In this document: in pieces, positions 47,627 through 59,150 of the stretch
Numbering within the stretch: the first letter of the stretch is position 1
How the letters are laid out: each line of letters begins with the position of its first letter
Assembly (NCBI RefSeq): GCF_000421465.1
Contig: NZ_ATXB01000001.1
Span: 558,001 to 622,000 of the forward strand
From: Methylohalobius crimeensis 10Ki
Lineage (GTDB): Bacteria; Pseudomonadota; Gammaproteobacteria; Methylococcales; Methylothermaceae
Direction: 5' to 3'
DNA length: 64,000 nucleotides
Notes under the pieces: model-generated
The model's input: only the letters and a program-made list of their open reading frames with translations
Told to the model about the DNA's origin: nothing
Database searches by the model: none
Position numbers and translations under genes: made by a program

Positions 47627-48395
47627 TTGGTTCTATGGCGTTGCTTGAAGCCAAGCATACGATTGCAACTCCCCTTGCTCAAGGTTTCGGCTTGCTCGAA
47701 TAGTTTTGACCGATTTGTGCAATCGGCGGTGGTTGGCCGGTTCCTTTTGCAGATAGGCGGTTTCATCCTCTTTCCGGTGGCGTAAATCCTCCAGATATTC
47801 CAATACCGCTTCCCGCGGCAAAAGCCGGTCAGACGCTTTCCTGCAGCGATTCCAGGTTAAGTGTCGAGTCGTTCGGGATTCTGGGTAATCTCTAATCTCC
47901 CACAGGTCCCCCGACGTCTGCATCGCCAGCCAAGATTCCTCAGTGATAATCCTTCTAGTTCACGTCGATGGCGTTCTGGTTGACGAATCGGAGGACCAAG
48001 CGCAGTTTTCCGGAAACGAAAACGGTAATGTAGCCGGTGATCTTCTGCATTGGATTCCGCAACCAATATACGTTTTCGCCACGATGTACAACGAACTTTT
48101 GTGGATAGTGTCGCGTTTTCGAATTCCCAGGGACCGCGAATTGGCAAAGTGAGATATAGCTCAAGGTTCCGATTTGTAAAATTTTTTTAAACTCGGATTA
48201 AGCAAAAAATTGAGTGGCCAGTTGCCGGTTTGATAGGGCTAACCTGATCCTTCTCCTGGCTTGTTCGCTTGTCCGCCTAATCGGGGACAAAAATCGCGAT
48301 TGGCGCTTTGACTGGGAAAACTGAAAAAAAATGACGAAGAAATGGGATTTATCGCCAATCACTATAACTTCTATGCATATTGCATACTTAGGCAA
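47627..48395. other. Gene-poor gap before the giant secreted protein
   Basis: These about 770 bases carry only short, mutually overlapping frames on both strands, none recognised. Composition is mixed and becomes AT-rich towards 48200-48390. It may be decayed coding DNA or a long promoter region for the giant gene. A TTGACT at 48308-48313 lacks a good -10 at the right distance. Confidence 0.4.
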
Positions 48396-51300
48396 ATGAA
48401 GTCGACTCATAAGCGACGGAACTTAGTTACTAGCCATGTAATTCTGTTGACTTTATTGCTGGTGTGGGGAGGCAAAGCGGTGTCTGCCGATGGTGGCATC
48501 AACTGGCTAGCGACACAGGCTCAGGTCAACGGAAGCTATACGGGACCTTCTAGTCTTGCTACCCCATTCCAGGCAACTGCGGAAACCCTACGAACTTTTT
48601 TCCACCTGGATAAGCCGTCACAGCCGGGGATTCCCGGAGCGCGCCAATTTCTGGAAAGCGATAGCTATCCAAGCACCGAGCATCTCAGCCGTCTGATTCT
48701 CATGCAAGCCGATGCCGGTTTCGGCGTTGCCGAAGCGGTTGAGTCGTTGATCGACAACGCCAATCCGGGCGGCGGATTCGGCGAGTTAGAAGGTTACTCT
48801 AGTACGGCGCTGGATACTGCTTTCGCGCTCGAGGCATTGAATGCTGCAGGTTATAACAGTCATGAAATCGCATGGCGTGCTCTAGATTTTTTACTGAATG
48901 CGCAAAGGCCCAACGGCGGCTGGCGCGAAGGAGACAATGCTTCCAGCGTCTACGTCACCGGATTGGTTCTTCACGCGCTGGCACCATACAGGACAAGCGT
49001 TCAGGACGTAGCAGAAGCCATCTCCGCAGCGCGCAGCTTTTTGTTCTCCAAACGGGGCGCCGACGGTTTGTGGAGTGAGGACTTTGCAAGCGCAACCGCT
49101 CTGATGGCGTTGATTGTCAGCGCTACCGATATTACCCCGCTTCAATCCACCGCAGACGCCCTTGCGGCACGGCAAAGAACCAACGGCAGCTGGTCCGATG
49201 ATGTCTTTTCCACTGCACTGGCTTTGCGGGCTTTGTGGCTTTACCAGCTCAGTTCAGCGGAGGTGAAATCTAACCTAGACGGAAGCGTCGGCGGTCGTGT
49301 GGTGACATCGGGAAGCGAGGCGCCGGTCGCCAATGCGGAAGTCTTTTTGGCTTCGCGTCCGGAATTTCGTGTTGTGACCGGAGAGGATGGCTATTTCCAT
49401 TTAACGGGTGTGCCTGCGGGAACGGAAACCGTGGTCGCGGAAAAAGAGGGTTATTTGTCCGTCACCAATGTGGTGACCGTTTTCGCCGATCAGGAGTCGA
49501 ATGCGGGGCAGTTGCTTCTGGCTTATAGTCCCCAAAGCGGCATCGTCACCGGTTCTATTACAGATAGCCATGATCAAAGTGCCTTATCCGGTGCGACGGT
49601 GAGCTTGATCGGTGCACAAGTTTATACCACAACCACGGGGGCCCGCGGTGCCTTTGAATTGGTTGGCATCGCCCCCGGCGATTATCAAGTGACTGTCGAA
49701 AAGACGGGTTATGTCACGGCTTCCGGCCAGGTGCATGCGGTTGCCGGCGAAGTCTTGGCACTGCGGCAGACGCTCGTGAGGACGGGTGCGTTTTTGGATG
49801 AGGCACCGGGCAACGTGACAGGGAGAGTGGTCGACGGCGCGACAGGCTCGCCAATCGCCGATGCCCGAATCGCGCTTAATGGAGAGATATCGGCAAGTAC
49901 GGATGGCAACGGTAACTTCCAGCTTCCCTCGTTGGCACGCGGATCGTACCAAGCCACCCTAACGGCCGATGGCTACCGTGGTCAAATTATTTTCTTCGTA
50001 TTCAATCCCGGCGCTTCAGGGGAACTTGGCACCTTGCGCCTTTACCACCTCAGTGACGCTATCGCGCCGTTCTCGCTGACACTCCATGGTCGGGTGATTG
50101 ATGGGGTGACGGGACAGCCGATCAGCGGTGCGTCGATCAAACGATTGGGGACGGAGCTTGCCGTACAGTCCGATTTTAACGGTGTCTTCACTTTATCGGA
50201 GTTGGAGGTGCTGAATTTTGAGCTCGTCTTTTCCGCCCCCGGCTATGTTGAGCGGACATTTACGCTTTCGGCCAGTGGTTATGGTGAATTTCAGCAGGAC
50301 TTTTTATTGCCTCCTGAAGAGGGTGATCCGAATGCCCCAACCACTACATTGACCGGCGTGGTCAAAAATCAATCGACGGGGGAACCGATCGCGGGAGCCA
50401 ACGTCTGGTTGTCGGGCGATCAAGGGTTTTTGGCACAGACCGACAGGGAAGGGCGGTTTGAAATCGTGGGCATTGATGCGCTCGAGTTCTCCCTTCGGGC
50501 GAGTGCGGTGGGGTACGTGGAAACCGCCCGGCAGCTGACCTTGTCCGCCCACGGGGTCTATATGCTTGATATTGACCTTGAGCCGCTTGCCGACGATCCA
50601 GCGAAGGAGCGTTTCCAGGTGGTTTCGCTGATGGCTCTGAGTGAATCGGTCGGTGCTGACGAAACCGTGATATTCGAAGCGGAGATCGGCAATTTGAGAG
50701 ACCAGGCGCAGGATGTTTTGGTCATCGGTGAAATGGTCAATGGGGCTGAAGAACCGATGGCAACGGTTATGCCTTATATCCCCGGCACCACTCAAACGGA
50801 GAGTCAATTCAGTTTTGCACCCGGGGAGGTCAAAACGCTCGACATCCCATGGCCTGTCGCACAAGCTGCGCCGGGCGACTACCAACTCATCCTGCGAGTG
50901 GTCGAACCCGGTACCGTCAGCCGCTCGCTGCCTACCGGTGTGGTGCTGGCCAAAGATAGAGCTTACGGTACGGTTCATCCGAGTGCCGCTTTCGACGGGA
51001 CCCTCGGGCTGCAGCCGCCGCTGACCCAAGCGGGAACCCAAGTGCCGGTGAAGCTCGATGCCCTGGTTGTCAATAGCGGCAACGTGCCTCTTGAGAATCT
51101 CGCGCTGACATTGGTCATTGAGAATCCCGCGAGCGGCAATGTGGTGCACGAGGCAAGTGCCTCTTTCGGCCGGTTGGCGGTCAGCAATCATAAGCTGGTG
51201 AGCTTCGGCGAATGGATTCCAACAGCTGAAGGTAATCTGGATATCCGCATCGAATCTGCAGAGCCAAGTATCGCCGGTGAAATCCGCGGCAATTTTTACG

Positions 51301-54300
51301 TGGGCGATAAGGCGACGGGTACCTTTGCCGTGGATAAGGCCGTCGTCCCGGAAGGTACCCGGACGGTGCGGGGTACCGTGACCCTGGACGGCGTCGATAC
51401 CGCTCTCGGAAGTACCACCGACCCATTGTTTTTTGCCGTGCGCAAAGCGGTACAAACCGGCGGAGAATACACAGCCCGCGAAGCCATGGCCTGGCAGCGG
51501 CGCAACCGCTGCATGGGCTGCCATATCCAGACGCAGAGTTTGGTGGGGGTAGCCGCGGCTTTCCAAAAGAATTTGGGCGATGAGGCTTCCGCCGTCAGTC
51601 TCTATAACACGATTGCCAGCAGCCGACAGGACGACGGCGGGTTGCGCTCCAGTCGCCCTCACAAGACGCGTACCCAGACCGCTTTGGGGGCATGGTCGCT
51701 TTCAGGTTGGGACGACATCGAAACCAGTTTTAGAACTCTATATAAAGCTGCCGAACATCTCTACGAGCGCAAGTCGCGGTCAGGCAATCGAACCTGGTGG
51801 AGTCCGGATCAAAAAGGCGGCTGGTGGTATTCCAGCGATGCCCATACCGCTATGACAGTCAAGGCGTATACCCGGTTGCTCAATGCTGCCGCTGAGATCG
51901 ATGTCGTGCAGATCGACGATTATCGTCTCGATGAGGTAGCAGGGCTTGGGCCAGGTGTCAAACCTCGGGATTTGGAAGTCGGACCGGACGGCTATCTCTA
52001 TGCCATCAAGCAGACGGGCGACCTGGTTCGGATCGATCCCGATACGGGCGTCGCTGAGACGGTCGGCGATCGCTTGCCTATCGACGGCTTCGGCCTTGCC
52101 ATCGACGCCGACGGAATAATTTACGTCTCCGGCAGGGGCGGCAAGCTGATTCGCCGGCATCCGGACGGTACCGTCGACACCCTGCTGTCGGGAAGCGGGG
52201 TGCTCACCGATGTGGAGATCGGCTTCGACGGGCTTCTTTATGTAGCGGACTATAGCCATCGTCGTATTTTGAAGGTGACCGCTACCGGCCAGTCGACGGT
52301 GTGGGCCGGGGGAGGCGTCCTCAATCGTCCTTATGGGCTGACACTCGATGAAGAAGGCAATGCATTCGTTGCCAACTACGGCGGTTTCAATATCGTCAAG
52401 GTAGATTCCGGCGGCACAGCGTCGATTTTTACCAACGGTCTCCAATACCGGCCGATCTGGATTGATCGAAATAGTTTGGGAGAATTCTATTTCTCGACCG
52501 CTTCCTATTCGAGCGAGGGACAATTTACCCCGGATGCCCTCAATCATCTCAGCGATCGCGGCGTGGTGGAGCGTTTGGCATCCGGCAATACCCTGCGCGG
52601 GGTAGCAGTGATGGGCGGGCGGACGTTTGCCGTGAGCACCAATGGCAACACTTTGCTGAAACTTCAGACCATACCTCTTGAGACCACATTGTTGCCAAAT
52701 TTTGCCGAGGAAGTCGCCCGTGCGGCGAATTACTTCCTGGCCCGTTATGGGGACAATACTTCGGACAACATCGTTCAGGCCATGAGGCTGACCGGACTGG
52801 CCGAAGCCCGCCGCGTGGTTGCGGACGAAGCGCTGAAGACGGAAATCGACGCGGCCATCGACACCATCGAACAGGTGCTACGTAAACGTCAGCGAGCGGA
52901 CGGCGGCTGGGGCCGCTATGTCGGCTGGGGAAGCGATTCCATGGTGACGGCCTTGGTCGGCATCGCCCTCGATTACACCGACCCCTCGAAGAACGATCCC
53001 CTGGTGCGCAATACCATCCAATATCTCCTGTCGAGTCAGCTCAGCGATCACTCCTGGCGCAGTGCCAATAGAATCCTGACGACGCGCCTGGCGGCGACCA
53101 GTTTGGTCGTGACTTATTTACCCGTCGCCTTGGAGCGTTTGGGCGGCATCGATGTGGATCTGCATCTGGCATTTCCCGAAAATTCGACATTGTCGGCGCC
53201 TTCCATTGCACCCTCGGAGCAATCCACCGACACCAGCGGCCACACCGAGTACCGTTGGCAGCTTCTCGGAGTGACTTCGAGCAGCCGGCAGCTCGATTTC
53301 GACCTGACCCTCGTCGATTTGGCCTTGGGCGAGGAACGGCCGGTGGCGCTGGAAGCCTACATCGAATTTCAGAACTCCTTCAACGAAGAAAAGATTCGTG
53401 TCGATCTGCCCATACCAACGGTTCGGGCGGAGAGCGAGATGAAGTTGACCCTCGGCACCGACCGCACCAACTACCAAGCTAACGATACCGTCGCTATCGA
53501 TGTCGCCGTCGACAATACGGGGACGACCGTGGCGGACGGTCGCGTCGAATTGGCGATTCGGGCCGCGGGATCGAGCGATTCCCTCGCGGTTCTCGATCCC
53601 CATTCATTCACCGGATTGGTTTCCGGCGAACAGTTGCCGATGACCGACGACTGGGGAACCGGAACTACCTTGGTGGGTGAATATGCGGTCCACGCGCGTC
53701 TTTTGGACGCCCAAGATCGCTTGCTCGATTATAAAACCGCGCCGTTCACCATCGATCATGGCGAGGCGCCGGTGATCGACGCACGGGTGTTGACCGACAA
53801 ACCGGTCTACGAAGCCTGGGATCAAGTATTGATCGAGGGACGGGTGGCCAATGTCAGCGAAAATGTCATTCAGCCACCGACGCGAGGCGTACTGACCGTT
53901 GCCGATCCCTCCGGCACGGTGATTTATACCAATCACGGCGATGTCGGCGAATTGGTTCCAGAGGGACTGCGGGATCTCGGCTTCACCTTGACCTTGGCCG
54001 ACGCCCCGGCCGGTATCTATTCGATCACTTGGGAGGTGCTGGACGACTTCAGCCATGCGCTCTTGGCGACGCGAACGACCGATTTCACCGTAGAGCGGCA
54101 GGCGGTCCAAGGCTTGACCGGAAGCGTCGAAGCTGCACCGACCCGGGTTTATCAAGGCGATCCGGTGCAGTGTTCGGAGCAGGTGACCAATCTCGCTGCA
54201 TCCGACTTGGCCGGTGTCAAACTGGTGAGTCAATTGGTCCGTCTCACCGATGAGCATGTCGTCGAAGGAGGTTCTCGGTTGGTGGATCTGAAAGGTGAGG

Positions 54301-55685
54301 GCACCCTCGTCGATCTCCGCGAGATTTCCACGGACGACCTGGCAGTAGGCGAGTACGCCTGCGTGCTGACTGCGGAAATCGAAGAGACCAGCCGCCAAAT
54401 CGGCGTGGCATTTTTTGCGGTCTTGGAGCCGCCGATCCGAATCGAAGGGCAGCTGACGAGTGGCGACCGCGGTCGCGTGCTGGTGCTCCTTGACGAGGTG
54501 CCCCAAAAAGGTCGTGGCCCTTCCAAGGGCGGCAATGACCCCTTGGGACCCAACCATCGTCCCGACCTGCCTATCCAGCGCACGGTTCTGGAAACCCTGC
54601 TGACGGAGGCGGGTTGGTCCTATACCGTCGTGACCCGGTCCGACGACTTCGCCCGGGAACTCCGAAGCGGCGGCTATGTGGCCTACCTGCTGCTGTCCGA
54701 ACAGGTCAAGCTGGCAGAAAGTGTACAGAAAGAATTGCGCGAAGCGGTTTATCGCGGCGAGGGGTTGGTGGAGGCCGGTGGCCACGATCAGCGTCAGGGA
54801 AGGATCGACGAGGCGCTGGGGGTGACGTTCCACGGCAAGTACGCCGGGATGACCGGCGTCGGTTTGCTCGACAGCCCGGTTGCATCGTCTGGAGACGCCG
54901 AATTTCAACTGGTCGACCGAAGCCTCCGAGCCAGCCTGGAAGGAGCCACGGCGATCGGTTACTTCAGCGCCGACGGAATGGCGACCGGCGAACCCGCCGT
55001 GACGGCTTACGAATACGGCCTGGGCAGAACGGTCTACGCCGGCATCGATCTATTGGCCGAGGCCTCGTTGACCGGCGCGGATGGTCTTTACGGCGAGCTT
55101 ATGCTCGACGCTCTGGCCTATGTCCATCCGGACGATTTGACGCACTTAACCCAAGTCGTATATCCGGTGCGCGTGGCGCTCGACAATCAGGGGATCGCGA
55201 CCCCGGGACAAGTGATCCTCTCCTTGCCGGAAGGCGTCACCGTGGTGGATGCCCGCGGCGCCGAAATCGACGCCGATGCACTTATCTGGCCTTTCGATCT
55301 GGCGGAAGGCGGCCATGTCACTTTCCACGCCTGGCTCAAACTGCCGGACGTGCCGGTGCCAATTGACGCGCTGATCCAAAGCGGCGCCGCTCCGGACTGG
55401 GAGGACCAAGAGGCGTTGACCCTGGATCTGGCGCCGGCGCCTTTGATCACGGTAGAGGAAGCGTATGCCTTGGCCGCACCGATCAAGGGCCAAGCCTACA
55501 AACAGGTGCGGAAATATCTGCAATGGGCGCAAAACGACAGCGCTGCGGGCGACTGGCCGGCGGCGCTGTCGTCGCTCCTTCGCGCCGCCGATGCCCTGAT
55601 TCCCATCGCCACGCCAGAGAGCGAGTCGCTGCGGGAAGCCGTGGCCCGCGCGATCCGCACCGTATCCATTCACATTGAACTATAA
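48396..55685 (+). CDS. Giant secreted multidomain protein (toroid repeats, CnaB-like repeats, CxxCH, NHL-like propeller)
   Basis: From the ATG of MKSTHKRRNLVTSHVILLTLL, a signal peptide ending near AVSA, the product has about 2,429 residues. In order: a prenyltransferase/terpenoid-cyclase-like helical toroid (about 35-290; GGWREGDNASSVYVTGLVLHA); five carboxypeptidase-regulatory/CnaB-like beta repeats (about 295-730; GRVVDGATGSPIADARI); Ig-like segments (to about 1005); a second toroid-like part with c-type heme motif C1039-M-G-C-H1043; an NHL-like propeller (about 1170-1430; PRDLEVGPDGYLYAI); a third toroid segment (about 1440-1580); more Ig-like segments (to about 2020); a glutamine-amidotransferase-like domain (about 2025-2245); and a helical tail. 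No wall anchor or autotransporter barrel is seen. Its function is unknown; it is probably an extracytoplasmic scaffold encoded with the next gene. Confidence 0.85.
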   Translation: MKSTHKRRNLVTSHVILLTLLLVWGGKAVSADGGINWLATQAQVNGSYTGPSSLATPFQATAETLRTFFHLDKPSQPGIPGARQFLESDSYPSTEHLSRLILMQADAGFGVAEAVESLIDNANPGGGFGELEGYSSTALDTAFALEALNAAGYNSHEIAWRALDFLLNAQRPNGGWREGDNASSVYVTGLVLHALAPYRTSVQDVAEAISAARSFLFSKRGADGLWSEDFASATALMALIVSATDITPLQSTADALAARQRTNGSWSDDVFSTALALRALWLYQLSSAEVKSNLDGSVGGRVVTSGSEAPVANAEVFLASRPEFRVVTGEDGYFHLTGVPAGTETVVAEKEGYLSVTNVVTVFADQESNAGQLLLAYSPQSGIVTGSITDSHDQSALSGATVSLIGAQVYTTTTGARGAFELVGIAPGDYQVTVEKTGYVTASGQVHAVAGEVLALRQTLVRTGAFLDEAPGNVTGRVVDGATGSPIADARIALNGEISASTDGNGNFQLPSLARGSYQATLTADGYRGQIIFFVFNPGASGELGTLRLYHLSDAIAPFSLTLHGRVIDGVTGQPISGASIKRLGTELAVQSDFNGVFTLSELEVLNFELVFSAPGYVERTFTLSASGYGEFQQDFLLPPEEGDPNAPTTTLTGVVKNQSTGEPIAGANVWLSGDQGFLAQTDREGRFEIVGIDALEFSLRASAVGYVETARQLTLSAHGVYMLDIDLEPLADDPAKERFQVVSLMALSESVGADETVIFEAEIGNLRDQAQDVLVIGEMVNGAEEPMATVMPYIPGTTQTESQFSFAPGEVKTLDIPWPVAQAAPGDYQLILRVVEPGTVSRSLPTGVVLAKDRAYGTVHPSAAFDGTLGLQPPLTQAGTQVPVKLDALVVNSGNVPLENLALTLVIENPASGNVVHEASASFGRLAVSNHKLVSFGEWIPTAEGNLDIRIESAEPSIAGEIRGNFYVGDKATGTFAVDKAVVPEGTRTVRGTVTLDGVDTALGSTTDPLFFAVRKAVQTGGEYTAREAMAWQRRNRCMGCHIQTQSLVGVAAAFQKNLGDEASAVSLYNTIASSRQDDGGLRSSRPHKTRTQTALGAWSLSGWDDIETSFRTLYKAAEHLYERKSRSGNRTWWSPDQKGGWWYSSDAHTAMTVKAYTRLLNAAAEIDVVQIDDYRLDEVAGLGPGVKPRDLEVGPDGYLYAIKQTGDLVRIDPDTGVAETVGDRLPIDGFGLAIDADGIIYVSGRGGKLIRRHPDGTVDTLLSGSGVLTDVEIGFDGLLYVADYSHRRILKVTATGQSTVWAGGGVLNRPYGLTLDEEGNAFVANYGGFNIVKVDSGGTASIFTNGLQYRPIWIDRNSLGEFYFSTASYSSEGQFTPDALNHLSDRGVVERLASGNTLRGVAVMGGRTFAVSTNGNTLLKLQTIPLETTLLPNFAEEVARAANYFLARYGDNTSDNIVQAMRLTGLAEARRVVADEALKTEIDAAIDTIEQVLRKRQRADGGWGRYVGWGSDSMVTALVGIALDYTDPSKNDPLVRNTIQYLLSSQLSDHSWRSANRILTTRLAATSLVVTYLPVALERLGGIDVDLHLAFPENSTLSAPSIAPSEQSTDTSGHTEYRWQLLGVTSSSRQLDFDLTLVDLALGEERPVALEAYIEFQNSFNEEKIRVDLPIPTVRAESEMKLTLGTDRTNYQANDTVAIDVAVDNTGTTVADGRVELAIRAAGSSDSLAVLDPHSFTGLVSGEQLPMTDDWGTGTTLVGEYAVHARLLDAQDRLLDYKTAPFTIDHGEAPVIDARVLTDKPVYEAWDQVLIEGRVANVSENVIQPPTRGVLTVADPSGTVIYTNHGDVGELVPEGLRDLGFTLTLADAPAGIYSITWEVLDDFSHALLATRTTDFTVERQAVQGLTGSVEAAPTRVYQGDPVQCSEQVTNLAASDLAGVKLVSQLVRLTDEHVVEGGSRLVDLKGEGTLVDLREISTDDLAVGEYACVLTAEIEETSRQIGVAFFAVLEPPIRIEGQLTSGDRGRVLVLLDEVPQKGRGPSKGGNDPLGPNHRPDLPIQRTVLETLLTEAGWSYTVVTRSDDFARELRSGGYVAYLLLSEQVKLAESVQKELREAVYRGEGLVEAGGHDQRQGRIDEALGVTFHGKYAGMTGVGLLDSPVASSGDAEFQLVDRSLRASLEGATAIGYFSADGMATGEPAVTAYEYGLGRTVYAGIDLLAEASLTGADGLYGELMLDALAYVHPDDLTHLTQVVYPVRVALDNQGIATPGQVILSLPEGVTVVDARGAEIDADALIWPFDLAEGGHVTFHAWLKLPDVPVPIDALIQSGAAPDWEDQEALTLDLAPAPLITVEEAYALAAPIKGQAYKQVRKYLQWAQNDSAAGDWPAALSSLLRAADALIPIATPESESLREAVARAIRTVSIHIEL

Positions 55686-55711
55686 GAACCCAACAAGGAA
55701 ACCAATCGATT

Positions 55712-58669
55712 ATGCAGATTCCCCTCCTTGCCAGCATGCGACACACCTCCCGCTTCATGCGCGGCACCGCCGCGTCGGCGCTCATTGCTTTCGTCATGCT
55801 CATTCTGCAGCCCACGATCGCGGCGGCGCGATCCGATAATACGCCCGCCCCTCCGCGCACGCCGGGTCACAGTGACGGCGTGGAATCCAAGCTGTCCAGG
55901 ACGTTGCAGCTGATTGAGCGCAAATTGGCAAGCGCGGAAGATAAATTGCTAAGACACCAGGGTGTCAGTGCGGAGCGCCGTGATATTAAGCAACTACGAA
56001 ATACGCTCAAGCAACTCGATTCCGCAGCCAGAAAGGACTTTGCGCGAATCGAACGGCACATCCTCGACCACCAACTGGCGCCGGTCGTCTTGGAGCGCCA
56101 TCGGGCCATGATCGACAACTACCGCCGGGAACTGCAAAGCCTAATCGATGAGTTGGAAGGCATCGAAGCCAGCAGCGACGACCACAATCGGTTGATCCAT
56201 ATCCAAAACGCCAAACGCCGGCTGAAAGCCAAACGGAACCAACGCAGTCAGCAGCCATTCGACCCCAATCAGCTGCCCAACACCCGTCTGCAGCCGCAGC
56301 CCAACCGCAAGCCTCGGGAAAAAAAAGCCGACTTTATTCAGGCCGGCCTGATCGATACCCCGCTTATCAATCTGGCCGCGCTGGGCGACTTCAGCTTTGA
56401 CAAGCTAGTCGGAGCCGACAACCCGGCCTATTTAGCAGAAAGCCCCGAAATCGTCCTGACCCGGGCCATCAAGGACAAAGCGGCCGAGCTCAATCACGAT
56501 CCGGTCAAGATCTACCACTGGGTCAGAAACAACGTCCAATGGCAGCCCACCTGGGGCGGCATCCAAAATGCCGAACTGACCCTTTCCGCCCTGCGCGGCA
56601 ACGCCATGGACATCGCCGGGCTCACCATCGCCCTGCTGCGTGCCTCGGGCATTCCTGCCCGCTACGTGCACGGCACCATCGATGTCCCGGCTGACGAATT
56701 CAAGAACTGGGCCGGAGGCTTTACTGACGTCACCGCCGCCGCCACATTCGCCTCTTCCGGCGGCATTCCCGTCACTTCCATCATCAGCGGCGGCCAGATC
56801 AGCAAGGTGCGTCTGGAACACGTCTGGGTGGAAGCCGCCATCGACTACATGCCCTCGCGCGGCGCCAAAAACCGGGATGCCGACGCCTGGGTGGCGCTGG
56901 ACCCCAGCTACAAGCAGTATGAATTCAAGAAGGGCCTGGATGCCGTCGCCATCAGCGGCATCGACCCCGAGCAGCTGGCGCAAAGCTTCATCGACAGCGG
57001 CACCGTCAACGAAACGGAAGGCTGGGTCACGGGTTTCGACCCGACCATTCTGCAGAACGCGCAGACTCAGGCGCAGCAGCAGCTCGAAGCCTACATCCAG
57101 GAGAACCTCACCGACCCCACGGTGGGCGACGTCATCGGCGGACGCCAAACCATCATCCAGGAATACCCGATGCTGCCCTCCGGCCTGCCCAACCGGATCG
57201 TCGTCGCCGGCAGCCGTTACGACAAGTTGCCGGCGAAGCTTCAGCAGACGATCACCTGGGCCTTCGGCAAGGACATCCTCGGCGACCTGATCGACCCGGT
57301 GAGCCTCCCCTTCGCCCGGGTCAACAACGAAAAGATCACCCTTTCGTTCAAGCCCGCCACGGAAGCCGACGAACAGGCCCTGCTGTCGCTCTTGCCGGAA
57401 GGCGAGATCACCGACATCAGCCAGCTGCCGACCAGCATCCCGGCCTACCTGGTCAACGTGGTGCCGGAACTGGCCGTCAATGGCCAAGTGGTGAAAACCG
57501 GCAGCGCCATGAGGCTCGGCGAAGAACTCGACTTCGTCACCGCCACGCGCTTTGCAGGGCGCGGGCAACTGCAAAGCCCCCGTACCTACAAAGTCATCGT
57601 AGGTTCCTACTTGGCCGTCAACGCCTACGCCGGCAGCGTCTCCCCGGCCCAGCTGCAAGCGGTGAAAACCAAGCTGGAGCAGACCAAAGCGGTGCTGGAA
57701 AGCGCCGACCAGGCCCAAATCGGCGCCCTGACCCGGGAGGCGCTCCTGGGCGACCTGTTCCACGCCGGGGGACTGGGCTACTACGCCCAACTCACCGCCC
57801 TGAGCCATATCCTGGGCTTGCGAACGGGAGGCCACCAGACCCTCGCGGCCGGCACCGGCACCTTCGGCTACGAGCCCAATGTCGACTACTTCTTCGGCTC
57901 GCCGAGAAACCTCAAGCCCGGCGGCGTGGTATTCGACATCCCCCTGGTCAAGATCAGCGCCACCGACGACGGCGATGCCGAGCGGCAAAGACAGTTCACT
58001 CTGCAAACCGGCATTCTCAGCTCGGCGCTGGAACATGCCGTGCCGGAACAGATGTTCGTCAACGACCAGAACCCGGGTGAAGCCATTTCCGCCGTCAAAG
58101 CCCTGCAAAAGGCCAACGCCCAAGGCCAGCGCATCTACCACATCACCCAGGCCAATCAATCGGCCATACTGCCTAATATCCATCATCATTTAGACACCAT
58201 GGACGAAATCCGAAACGCTTTGAATAACGGGAAGGAGGTAATTACCCATACGGATGCGGTGAGCGTGCCGGGTTGGTCGGGTGCGGGCTATGTCATCGTC
58301 GATCCGGTGACTGGAGATGGGGCTTATAAAATTGCAGGTGGAGGAAATGGAGGGTATTTGTTTCTGCAAGGCTCCTTCATGGGTATTTTATTGCCATCAG
58401 CTATGTTGTTGGTATTTGGTGGAGGGTTGCTCGGAATTCTCAGTGCCGTATTATCTGTAGTTATAATGACATACATTTTAATAGAGGTATCAGCGCAACA
58501 GAAGGCTGGGTGCTTTTGGGCTGGTTTTTCTGCTGGGTTGGGTATTTTGACATCGATTGGAGTAGAAGTTGGTAAAAGAGCAAGCTTTATATTTTGGATG
58601 CTTACACTGGCATTGTCATATAATTCTACAACTGGCACGGAGCCAATTGAAAGATGTCTGGAGTTTTAA
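55712..58669 (+). CDS. Transglutaminase-fold secreted protein with hydrophobic variable-looking tail
   Basis: The 985-residue protein has a signal peptide (about 15-42), an alpha-helical region (about 55-175), and a transglutaminase-like core near 245-400. The core keeps H370 (LEHVWVEA) and D397 (VALDPSYK) but has GNAMD at 296-300 where active enzymes have a Cys, so it is probably not a cysteine enzyme; this GNA-type variant is known from RHS-associated proteins. A central region (about 410-880) follows, ending GAGYVIVDPVTGDGAYKI. After a glycine linker the last about 100 residues are hydrophobic, with several membrane helices, and the DNA turns sharply AT-rich. The tail looks exchanged, as in polymorphic toxins. 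The gene follows the giant gene by 26 bases. Confidence 0.8.
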   Translation: MQIPLLASMRHTSRFMRGTAASALIAFVMLILQPTIAAARSDNTPAPPRTPGHSDGVESKLSRTLQLIERKLASAEDKLLRHQGVSAERRDIKQLRNTLKQLDSAARKDFARIERHILDHQLAPVVLERHRAMIDNYRRELQSLIDELEGIEASSDDHNRLIHIQNAKRRLKAKRNQRSQQPFDPNQLPNTRLQPQPNRKPREKKADFIQAGLIDTPLINLAALGDFSFDKLVGADNPAYLAESPEIVLTRAIKDKAAELNHDPVKIYHWVRNNVQWQPTWGGIQNAELTLSALRGNAMDIAGLTIALLRASGIPARYVHGTIDVPADEFKNWAGGFTDVTAAATFASSGGIPVTSIISGGQISKVRLEHVWVEAAIDYMPSRGAKNRDADAWVALDPSYKQYEFKKGLDAVAISGIDPEQLAQSFIDSGTVNETEGWVTGFDPTILQNAQTQAQQQLEAYIQENLTDPTVGDVIGGRQTIIQEYPMLPSGLPNRIVVAGSRYDKLPAKLQQTITWAFGKDILGDLIDPVSLPFARVNNEKITLSFKPATEADEQALLSLLPEGEITDISQLPTSIPAYLVNVVPELAVNGQVVKTGSAMRLGEELDFVTATRFAGRGQLQSPRTYKVIVGSYLAVNAYAGSVSPAQLQAVKTKLEQTKAVLESADQAQIGALTREALLGDLFHAGGLGYYAQLTALSHILGLRTGGHQTLAAGTGTFGYEPNVDYFFGSPRNLKPGGVVFDIPLVKISATDDGDAERQRQFTLQTGILSSALEHAVPEQMFVNDQNPGEAISAVKALQKANAQGQRIYHITQANQSAILPNIHHHLDTMDEIRNALNNGKEVITHTDAVSVPGWSGAGYVIVDPVTGDGAYKIAGGGNGGYLFLQGSFMGILLPSAMLLVFGGGLLGILSAVLSVVIMTYILIEVSAQQKAGCFWAGFSAGLGILTSIGVEVGKRASFIFWMLTLALSYNSTTGTEPIERCLEF

Positions 58670-59150
58670 ATGATATATTATGTTATGTCTTGCCTAATAA
58701 TAATTATTTTTTCAAAATACATTTATCGTTTATATGTGATGATGGATGGAAAGAATAAGCAAATATTTGGATTTGAAGACATCGATCCTGTAGCTATAGT
58801 TGTTGTGGTTTGTGTGGGGTTTGTCCCAATGATTGTATATTTTACAGAATACGAATTATGGTTTATTTTGTTGGCCTTTGTATTGATTTCAATATGTTTA
58901 TGTGAAAAACCGAGTGTCGTTATGAAGCTATTCTGTTTGTCGGTTGTATTTCTAAGTATTTCTTTGCGGCTCGGTGTTTCTGGTTATTATCTCATAGCTA
59001 TTAGCGCTATCTTTCCTCTTTTTAGCTTTATAGTTTTTATTTTATCTAAAATTTTTATGAAGTGGGATGGGGTTTTGTTTAAAATCTGAATCCGTATTAG
59101 ATAACTAACTTTTGCGGGATTATTTGCTCATTTCTGTGACAGCTTTTCCT
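58340..59150. other. AT-rich island over the tail of the transglutaminase-fold gene and the next gene
   Basis: Base composition drops abruptly from GC-rich to strongly AT-rich near 58340, inside a reading frame, and returns near 59155 at the ABC permease gene. Codon use follows: TTA, AAT, ATA and TTT dominate. The change inside one gene is a sign of recombination that replaced the 3' module together with its downstream neighbour. Confidence 0.7.
58670..59089 (+). CDS. Small AT-rich membrane protein, candidate immunity or partner protein
   Basis: The 139-residue protein starts directly at the stop of the preceding gene (TAA then ATG). It has about four or five hydrophobic segments: CLIIIIFSKYIYRLYVM, AIVVVVCVGFVPMIVYF, LWFILLAFVLISICLC and two towards the C-terminus. 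No family was recognised. It shares the AT-rich composition of the tail before it. In polymorphic toxin loci, a small gene abutting a toxin tail commonly encodes the immunity protein, and membrane toxins have membrane immunity proteins; that role here is inference. Confidence 0.7.
   Translation: MIYYVMSCLIIIIFSKYIYRLYVMMDGKNKQIFGFEDIDPVAIVVVVCVGFVPMIVYFTEYELWFILLAFVLISICLCEKPSVVMKLFCLSVVFLSISLRLGVSGYYLIAISAIFPLFSFIVFILSKIFMKWDGVLFKI

What the first reader, a model, noticed from the sequence alone, without database searches (positions are those of the whole stretch)
48396..59089. Three-gene locus of giant scaffold, transglutaminase-fold protein and small membrane protein
Seen: a ~2,430-residue secreted protein mixing helical toroids, CnaB-like repeats, a heme motif, an NHL-like propeller and Ig-like segments, then a 985-residue secreted protein, then a 139-residue membrane protein, with gaps of 26 and 0 bases. 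Known: transglutaminase-fold proteins without the Cys occur next to RHS and other surface modules, and polymorphic toxin loci carry exchangeable tails with immunity genes. Inference: the trio is a cell-surface or contact-dependent system in which the giant protein displays or processes the second. I know of no described system with this composition.
Basis: partly seen in the sequence, partly recalled or inferred. Interest (0 to 1): 0.8.

Follow-up and report, generated by a model that had tools for sequence, protein, structure and literature searches.

The report
Polymorphic toxin with giant toroid partner
This three-gene cluster looks like a bacterial weapon: a secreted protein with a swappable toxic tail, the small membrane protein that protects the owner from that tail, and a giant surface-type partner protein that travels with this toxin family across many bacteria and that I found described nowhere.

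Summary
The three genes exist as described. The 985-aa protein (TG2) is a polymorphic toxin. Its constant part (residues about 1-881, with a transglutaminase fold whose catalytic Cys is missing in all 71 homologues) is followed by a tail exchanged wholesale between relatives: 82% identical constant part and unrelated tails against Methylobacter marinus; 96-97% in two other pairs. Tails elsewhere match NlpC/P60, Amidase_2, Ntox16, HINT-Ntox30 and HNH. In the window the tail is hydrophobic, and tail plus 139-aa gene are AT-rich (41% and 30% GC against 61%). Hydrophobic tails go with membrane neighbours (Fisher P = 1e-6), so the 139-aa protein is most likely the immunity protein of a membrane-active toxin. 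The giant is a true partner: its C-terminal part occurs in 7 of 201 Methylococcales genomes, all with TG2, adjacent at 7 of 8 loci (the eighth lies at a contig end). Its core, a squalene-cyclase-like toroid, also precedes the RHS-fused inactive-transglutaminase toxins described in 2012 (21 of 23). Some partners carry SLH or IPTL-CTERM surface-anchoring domains. I infer surface display or delivery; the route is unknown. Inactive-transglutaminase polymorphic toxins are known; the toroid partner and RHS-free form I found undescribed.

The parts
48342..55685 (+). Giant partner protein G1 (2447 aa; start at 48396 also possible, with a Sec-type signal peptide)
   Evidence: ORF; Pfam SQHop_cyclase, CarboxypepD_reg x5, MG2, Vgb_lyase; adjacent to TG2 in relatives
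48459..49277 (+). N-terminal alpha/alpha toroid (squalene-cyclase-like), the core shared with the small partners of RHS-fused toxins
   Evidence: Pfam SQHop_cyclase_C; profile matches to 450-560 aa toroid genes
49275..50666 (+). Five CnaB/CarboxypepD_reg-like domains
   Evidence: Pfam E 6e-61
51432..53138 (+). Second helical toroid interrupted by a six-bladed NHL-like propeller (about 51915-52676)
   Evidence: AlphaFold model mdb062daeaa5b, Foldseek to Pizza6/PknD/virginiamycin B lyase
51510..51524 (+). CxxCH motif (CMGCH, followed by IQTQ); optional module, found in 8 giants
53148..55682 (+). Conserved C-terminal unit of the giant: Ig/macroglobulin-like domains, GATase-like alpha/beta domain, helical C-terminus; a separate gene in several relatives
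55712..58669 (+). TG2, polymorphic toxin carrier (985 aa)
   Evidence: Pfam Transglut_core; AlphaFold mean pLDDT 84, pTM 0.82
55877..56236 (+). N-terminal helical domain of TG2 (about residues 56-175); its presence correlates with having a toroid partner
   Evidence: helices; 55/66 vs 3/12, P 1e-4
56495..56905 (+). Transglutaminase-fold domain without catalytic Cys (Ala298 at 56603-56605)
58301..58354 (+). Junction motif DPVTGDGAYKIAGGGNGG, the last conserved residues before the variable tail
   Evidence: structure confidence collapses from residue 888
58355..58669 (+). Variable C-terminal tail, hydrophobic, predicted membrane-active toxin
58670..59089 (+). Predicted immunity protein, 139 aa, about 5 transmembrane segments, 30% GC

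Best explanation
A three-gene antibacterial polymorphic toxin locus. TG2 is secreted (Sec signal); its constant part (helical domain, inactive transglutaminase fold, further domains up to the GAYKIAGGGNGG motif) carries a recombination-swapped C-terminal tail. In this genome the tail is a hydrophobic, membrane-active (pore-forming-like) toxin, and the following 139-aa polytopic membrane protein is its cognate immunity protein, acquired with it as one AT-rich cassette. The giant toroid/CnaB/macroglobulin-like protein is a tail-independent partner that holds TG2 at the cell surface or takes part in its delivery, probably through the N-terminal helical domain of TG2. Shown by comparison: constant/variable boundary, tail exchange, toxin domains in sister tails, coupling of tail type to neighbour type, conserved toroid neighbour. 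Inferred: toxicity and immunity of this particular pair, membrane target, docking, surface display. Unknown: route across the outer membrane and into the target.
For: Tail exchange: only 21 of 2080 tail pairs resemble each other; among pairs with constant parts 45-99% identical nearly all tails are unrelated; window vs Methylobacter marinus 82%, Alloalcanivorax vs Alcanivorax 97%, tandem Zoogloeaceae copies 96%, all with unrelated tails. Toxin domains at the same position in relatives: NlpC/P60, Amidase_2, PT-HINT+Ntox30, Ntox16, and in RHS-fused forms HNH behind PT-TG, NucA/NucB, AHH. Displaced tail cassettes without N-terminus. GC 0.612 constant, 0.410 tail, 0.302 immunity gene; tail lower in 49 of 60 loci, P 9e-9. 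Hydrophobic tail with membrane neighbour 26/32, other tails 3/22, P 1e-6; six of seven signal-peptide neighbours follow other tails, including peptidoglycan-hydrolase-like ones. Partner. Several TG2 copies with different tails share one giant (Methylovulum). Surface anchors on partners: three SLH, IPTL-CTERM.
Against: No experiment. The window's tail and small protein match no family. No anchor is seen on this giant itself. No secretion apparatus was recognised next to the locus. 8 of 49 loci show no partner within 3.5 kb, and TG-RHS proteins lacking the N-terminal helical domain mostly have none.
Confidence: 0.72

Rival explanations
1. The giant is not a display scaffold but a periplasmic or extracellular chaperone/casing that keeps the tail inactive or folds TG2, taking the role that the RHS cage has in the fused forms.
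For: The elaborated C-terminal unit of the giant accompanies RHS-free TG2; RHS-fused relatives in the same order have just a 450-560 aa toroid.
Against: Partners with SLH or IPTL-CTERM surface anchors argue for a surface position; but these anchors are on small or Gram-positive versions, not on this giant.
Confidence: 0.25
2. The hydrophobic tail is only a membrane anchor for TG2 and the small protein a structural membrane partner; no toxin is involved.
For: Tail and small protein of the window are hydrophobic and match no toxin or immunity family.
Against: At the same position relatives carry nucleases and peptidoglycan hydrolases, tails are exchanged between near-identical proteins, and orphan tail cassettes lie near some loci.
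Confidence: 0.1
3. TG2 is an active transglutaminase that cross-links or modifies the giant (the giant as substrate).
For: His and Asp of the triad are kept in 70 of 71 homologues each.
Against: The Cys position is Ala, Asp, Ser or Pro in all 71 homologues, never Cys.
Confidence: 0.03
4. Giant and toxin are chance neighbours.
For: None found beyond the locus being accessory (absent from nine same-genus genomes).
Against: All 7 genomes with the giant's C-part are among the 9 of 201 with strong TG2 (hypergeometric P 1.5e-11), adjacent at 7 of 8 loci.
Confidence: 0.01

Closest known systems
Inactive-transglutaminase, RHS-type polymorphic toxins (Zhang et al. 2012, PMC3482391)
   Same: Signal peptide, transglutaminase fold lacking a catalytic residue, variable C-terminal toxins, downstream immunity gene
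   Different: No RHS repeats here; the variable tail follows the constant part directly; a toroid partner gene, not mentioned in that paper, precedes it
Contact-dependent inhibition (CdiA/CdiB/CdiI) and Rhs systems
   Same: Exchangeable C-terminal toxin, immunity gene directly behind, orphan cassettes (general knowledge; abstracts, e.g. PMC3150448)
   Different: No haemagglutinin repeats or CdiB; the partner is a toroid/macroglobulin-like protein, not a beta-barrel
Alpha-2-macroglobulin / complement C3-C5 family
   Same: Combination of alpha/alpha toroid (TED-like) and MG domains
   Different: Order of domains differs, CnaB and propeller added, no CGEQ thioester; only a GCHIQ sequence in a subset

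Membership tests
Polymorphic toxin system | Constant N-terminal part with unrelated C-terminal tails among close relatives | tested here: met
Polymorphic toxin system | Known toxin domains among the tails | tested here: met
   (in relatives, not in the window's own tail)
Polymorphic toxin system | Cognate immunity gene directly downstream, changing with the tail | tested here: met
   by position and class only; protection not tested
Polymorphic toxin system | Displaced toxin cassettes | tested here: met
   in relatives; none in the window's own genome
Polymorphic toxin system | Toxicity and neutralisation | not testable with these tools
   needs an expression assay
Inactive-transglutaminase polymorphic toxins (Zhang 2012) | Transglutaminase domain behind a signal peptide, catalytic residue lost | tested here: met
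   a helical domain of about 120 residues lies between
Inactive-transglutaminase polymorphic toxins (Zhang 2012) | Followed by an array of RHS repeats | tested here: not met
   no RHS in the window protein; RHS present in some homologues
CDI (two-partner secretion) | CdiA haemagglutinin repeats and CdiB barrel | tested here: not met
   no such domain in the three proteins
Alpha-2-macroglobulin family | TED domain with CxEQ/CGEQ thioester | tested here: not met
   TED_complement only E 0.08 in the window giant; only GCHIQ in the second toroid

The most novel reading that the evidence does not exclude
The toroid proteins define an undescribed delivery or display class for polymorphic toxins: a surface-anchored alpha/alpha toroid (from 450-aa IPTL-CTERM or SLH forms to 2400-3000-aa macroglobulin-like giants) that docks the helical/inactive-transglutaminase head of the toxin and is needed for contact-dependent killing, in Proteobacteria, Myxococcota, Nitrospirota, Geobacter-type and clostridial genomes.
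Probability: 0.4. Interest if true: 0.8.

Novelty: new variant of a known kind. Interest (0 to 1): 0.62.

Why it matters
The role of the inactive transglutaminase domain in polymorphic toxins and their way to the surface have been guesses since 2012. A conserved neighbour gene gives a concrete, testable partner, one that is widespread and, in an annotated record, named only 'prenyltransferase/squalene oxidase repeat-containing protein'. It also supplies a set of small hydrophobic toxin and membrane immunity candidates; those scanned match no family model.

Tried and rejected
PADLOC and PHROGs gave nothing meaningful. A profile search of PDB sequences for TG2 gave only the transglutaminase core and ATP synthase b at the helical N-terminus, probably coiled-coil chance. 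Flank comparison with same-genus genomes to find an empty site was inconclusive: rpoD is present in all nine, but the ABC transporter hits were relatives of about 40% identity. Paper searches for a toroid or squalene-cyclase partner of polymorphic toxins found none. A heme or thioester role of CxxCHIQ could not be decided: the Q is missing in one of eight giants. Transmembrane segments were counted with a simple hydropathy rule, as no dedicated predictor was at hand.

Full report
Observation. The three ORFs and their spacing are as stated. Pfam and an AlphaFold model of giant residues 1030-2229 confirm two squalene-cyclase-like toroids, five CnaB-like domains, a six-bladed NHL-type propeller inserted within the second toroid, and macroglobulin/Ig-like domains; a GATase-like alpha/beta domain follows. 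TG2 has a transglutaminase fold (E 1.4e-14). In an alignment of 71 homologues the Cys position is Ala 56, Asp 11, Ser 3, Pro 1; His is kept in 70 and Asp in 70.

Constant and variable part. Relatives were collected from whole genomes and from a collection of 84,980 species genomes. Homology ends sharply at the motif DPxTGxGAYxIxGGxNGG (residues 864-881). The AlphaFold model of TG2 is confident over most of residues 53-887 and falls below pLDDT 50 from residue 888, although this partly reflects that the alignment has no homologues for the tail. Among 65 tails, 21 of 2080 pairs are similar at E 1e-3. The window and Methylobacter marinus share 82% of the constant part (residues 230-876) and nothing in the tail; other pairs share 96-97% and nothing in the tail.

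What the tails are. In relatives the tail is NlpC/P60, Amidase_2, PT-HINT with Ntox30, Ntox16, DUF6310, or, in RHS-fused forms, HNH behind PT-TG, NucA/NucB or AHH nuclease; SLT and phospholipase A2 matches are weak. Well over half of the classified tails are hydrophobic, mostly 100-150 residues long, like that of the window. These are followed by membrane proteins in 26 of 32 cases, other tails in 3 of 22 (Fisher P 1e-6); six of the seven neighbours classed as signal-peptide proteins follow other tails, among them two NlpC/P60 tails and an SLT-like tail. The classification uses a simple hydropathy rule and the longest nearby ORF, and related loci are not fully independent. GC content drops from 61% (constant) to 41% (tail) and 30% (139-aa gene) in the window, and the tail is lower in 49 of 60 relatives. 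Tail cassettes detached from the N-terminal part occur in several relatives.

The partner. The C-terminal unit of the giant was found in 7 of 201 Methylococcales genomes; all 7 are among the 9 genomes with TG2 at E below 1e-100 (P 1.5e-11). At 7 of 8 loci it lies immediately upstream of TG2 on the same strand; the eighth, and its TG2, lie at contig ends. The order is named from G032, whose main contig has the length of Methylovulum miyakonense NZ_KB913025.1. In the wider set 41 of 49 loci with at least 3 kb upstream have a toroid or giant gene within 3.5 kb, always on the same strand, upstream in 29 of them. In some relatives the giant is split into two genes of about 900 and 1200-1600 residues. 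Several TG2 copies with different tails can share one giant (Methylovulum miyakonense), so the giant serves the constant part, not one tail.

Link to a known family. RHS-fused inactive-transglutaminase toxins, described by Zhang et al. 2012 (PMC3482391 section 19), turned up as weaker hits in the same order. A toroid gene, mostly 450-560 residues, precedes most of them directly: 21 of 23 toroid hits at E below 1e-9 are neighbours of such a gene; a Spartinivicinus plasmid shows the same, annotated as prenyltransferase/squalene oxidase repeat-containing protein. The 2012 paper contains no mention of squalene, prenyltransferase or toroid in the text held. Having the N-terminal helical domain of TG2 goes with having a toroid partner (55 of 66 against 3 of 12, P 1e-4); several of the 11 exceptions are second copies at loci with one giant.

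Mechanism. Toroid partners carry three SLH domains in a clostridial genome and IPTL-CTERM sorting signals in three methanotroph loci, so at least these probably sit on the cell surface. I infer that the toroid protein holds the toxin at the surface through the helical/transglutaminase head, that the tail enters a neighbouring cell and, in the window's case, damages its membrane, and that the 139-aa membrane protein protects kin. Delivery across the outer membrane is unexplained. Zhang et al. already proposed that the inactive transglutaminase anchors the toxin by binding peptides; the toroid protein is a natural candidate for what it binds.

Verdict. A real and coherent system: a new variant (RHS-free, with a giant toroid partner) of a known kind (inactive-transglutaminase polymorphic toxins). 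The unexpected part is the conserved toroid partner.

Noticed in passing
window 51510-51536: CMGCHIQTQ in the second toroid: readable as heme c motif CxxCH or, by position at the start of a toroid helix, as a thioester-like GCxxQ; CxxCHI..Q is conserved in eight giants, the first Q in seven of them.
   Followed up: partly
L142 13547-14113 (Methylomonas sp. DH-1 plasmid): An exosortase gene (xrtM) lies behind an inactive-transglutaminase RHS toxin, while other toroid partners carry IPTL-CTERM sorting signals.
   Followed up: no
L079 12452-13099, L080, L083 (Geobacter-type genomes): A tail family of about 220 residues with YYSGHG and NSC motifs, resembling caspase-like peptidases by eye; the one scanned has no Pfam match; followed by a signal-peptide neighbour in L079 and L080.
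   Followed up: partly
L025 4837-5571, L076 3819-4568: DUF6310 occurs as a tail in two different loci; an E-x-K motif suggests by eye a restriction-endonuclease-fold nuclease, so DUF6310 may be a toxin family.
   Followed up: partly
window 58343-59089: Sharp local drop of GC to about 30% between the constant part of TG2 and the converging ABC transporter genes.
   Followed up: yes
L024/L034 (Methylovulum miyakonense): One giant followed by several TG2 copies, fragments and detached tails, with apparent transposase remnants: an array that looks like active cassette turnover.
   Followed up: partly
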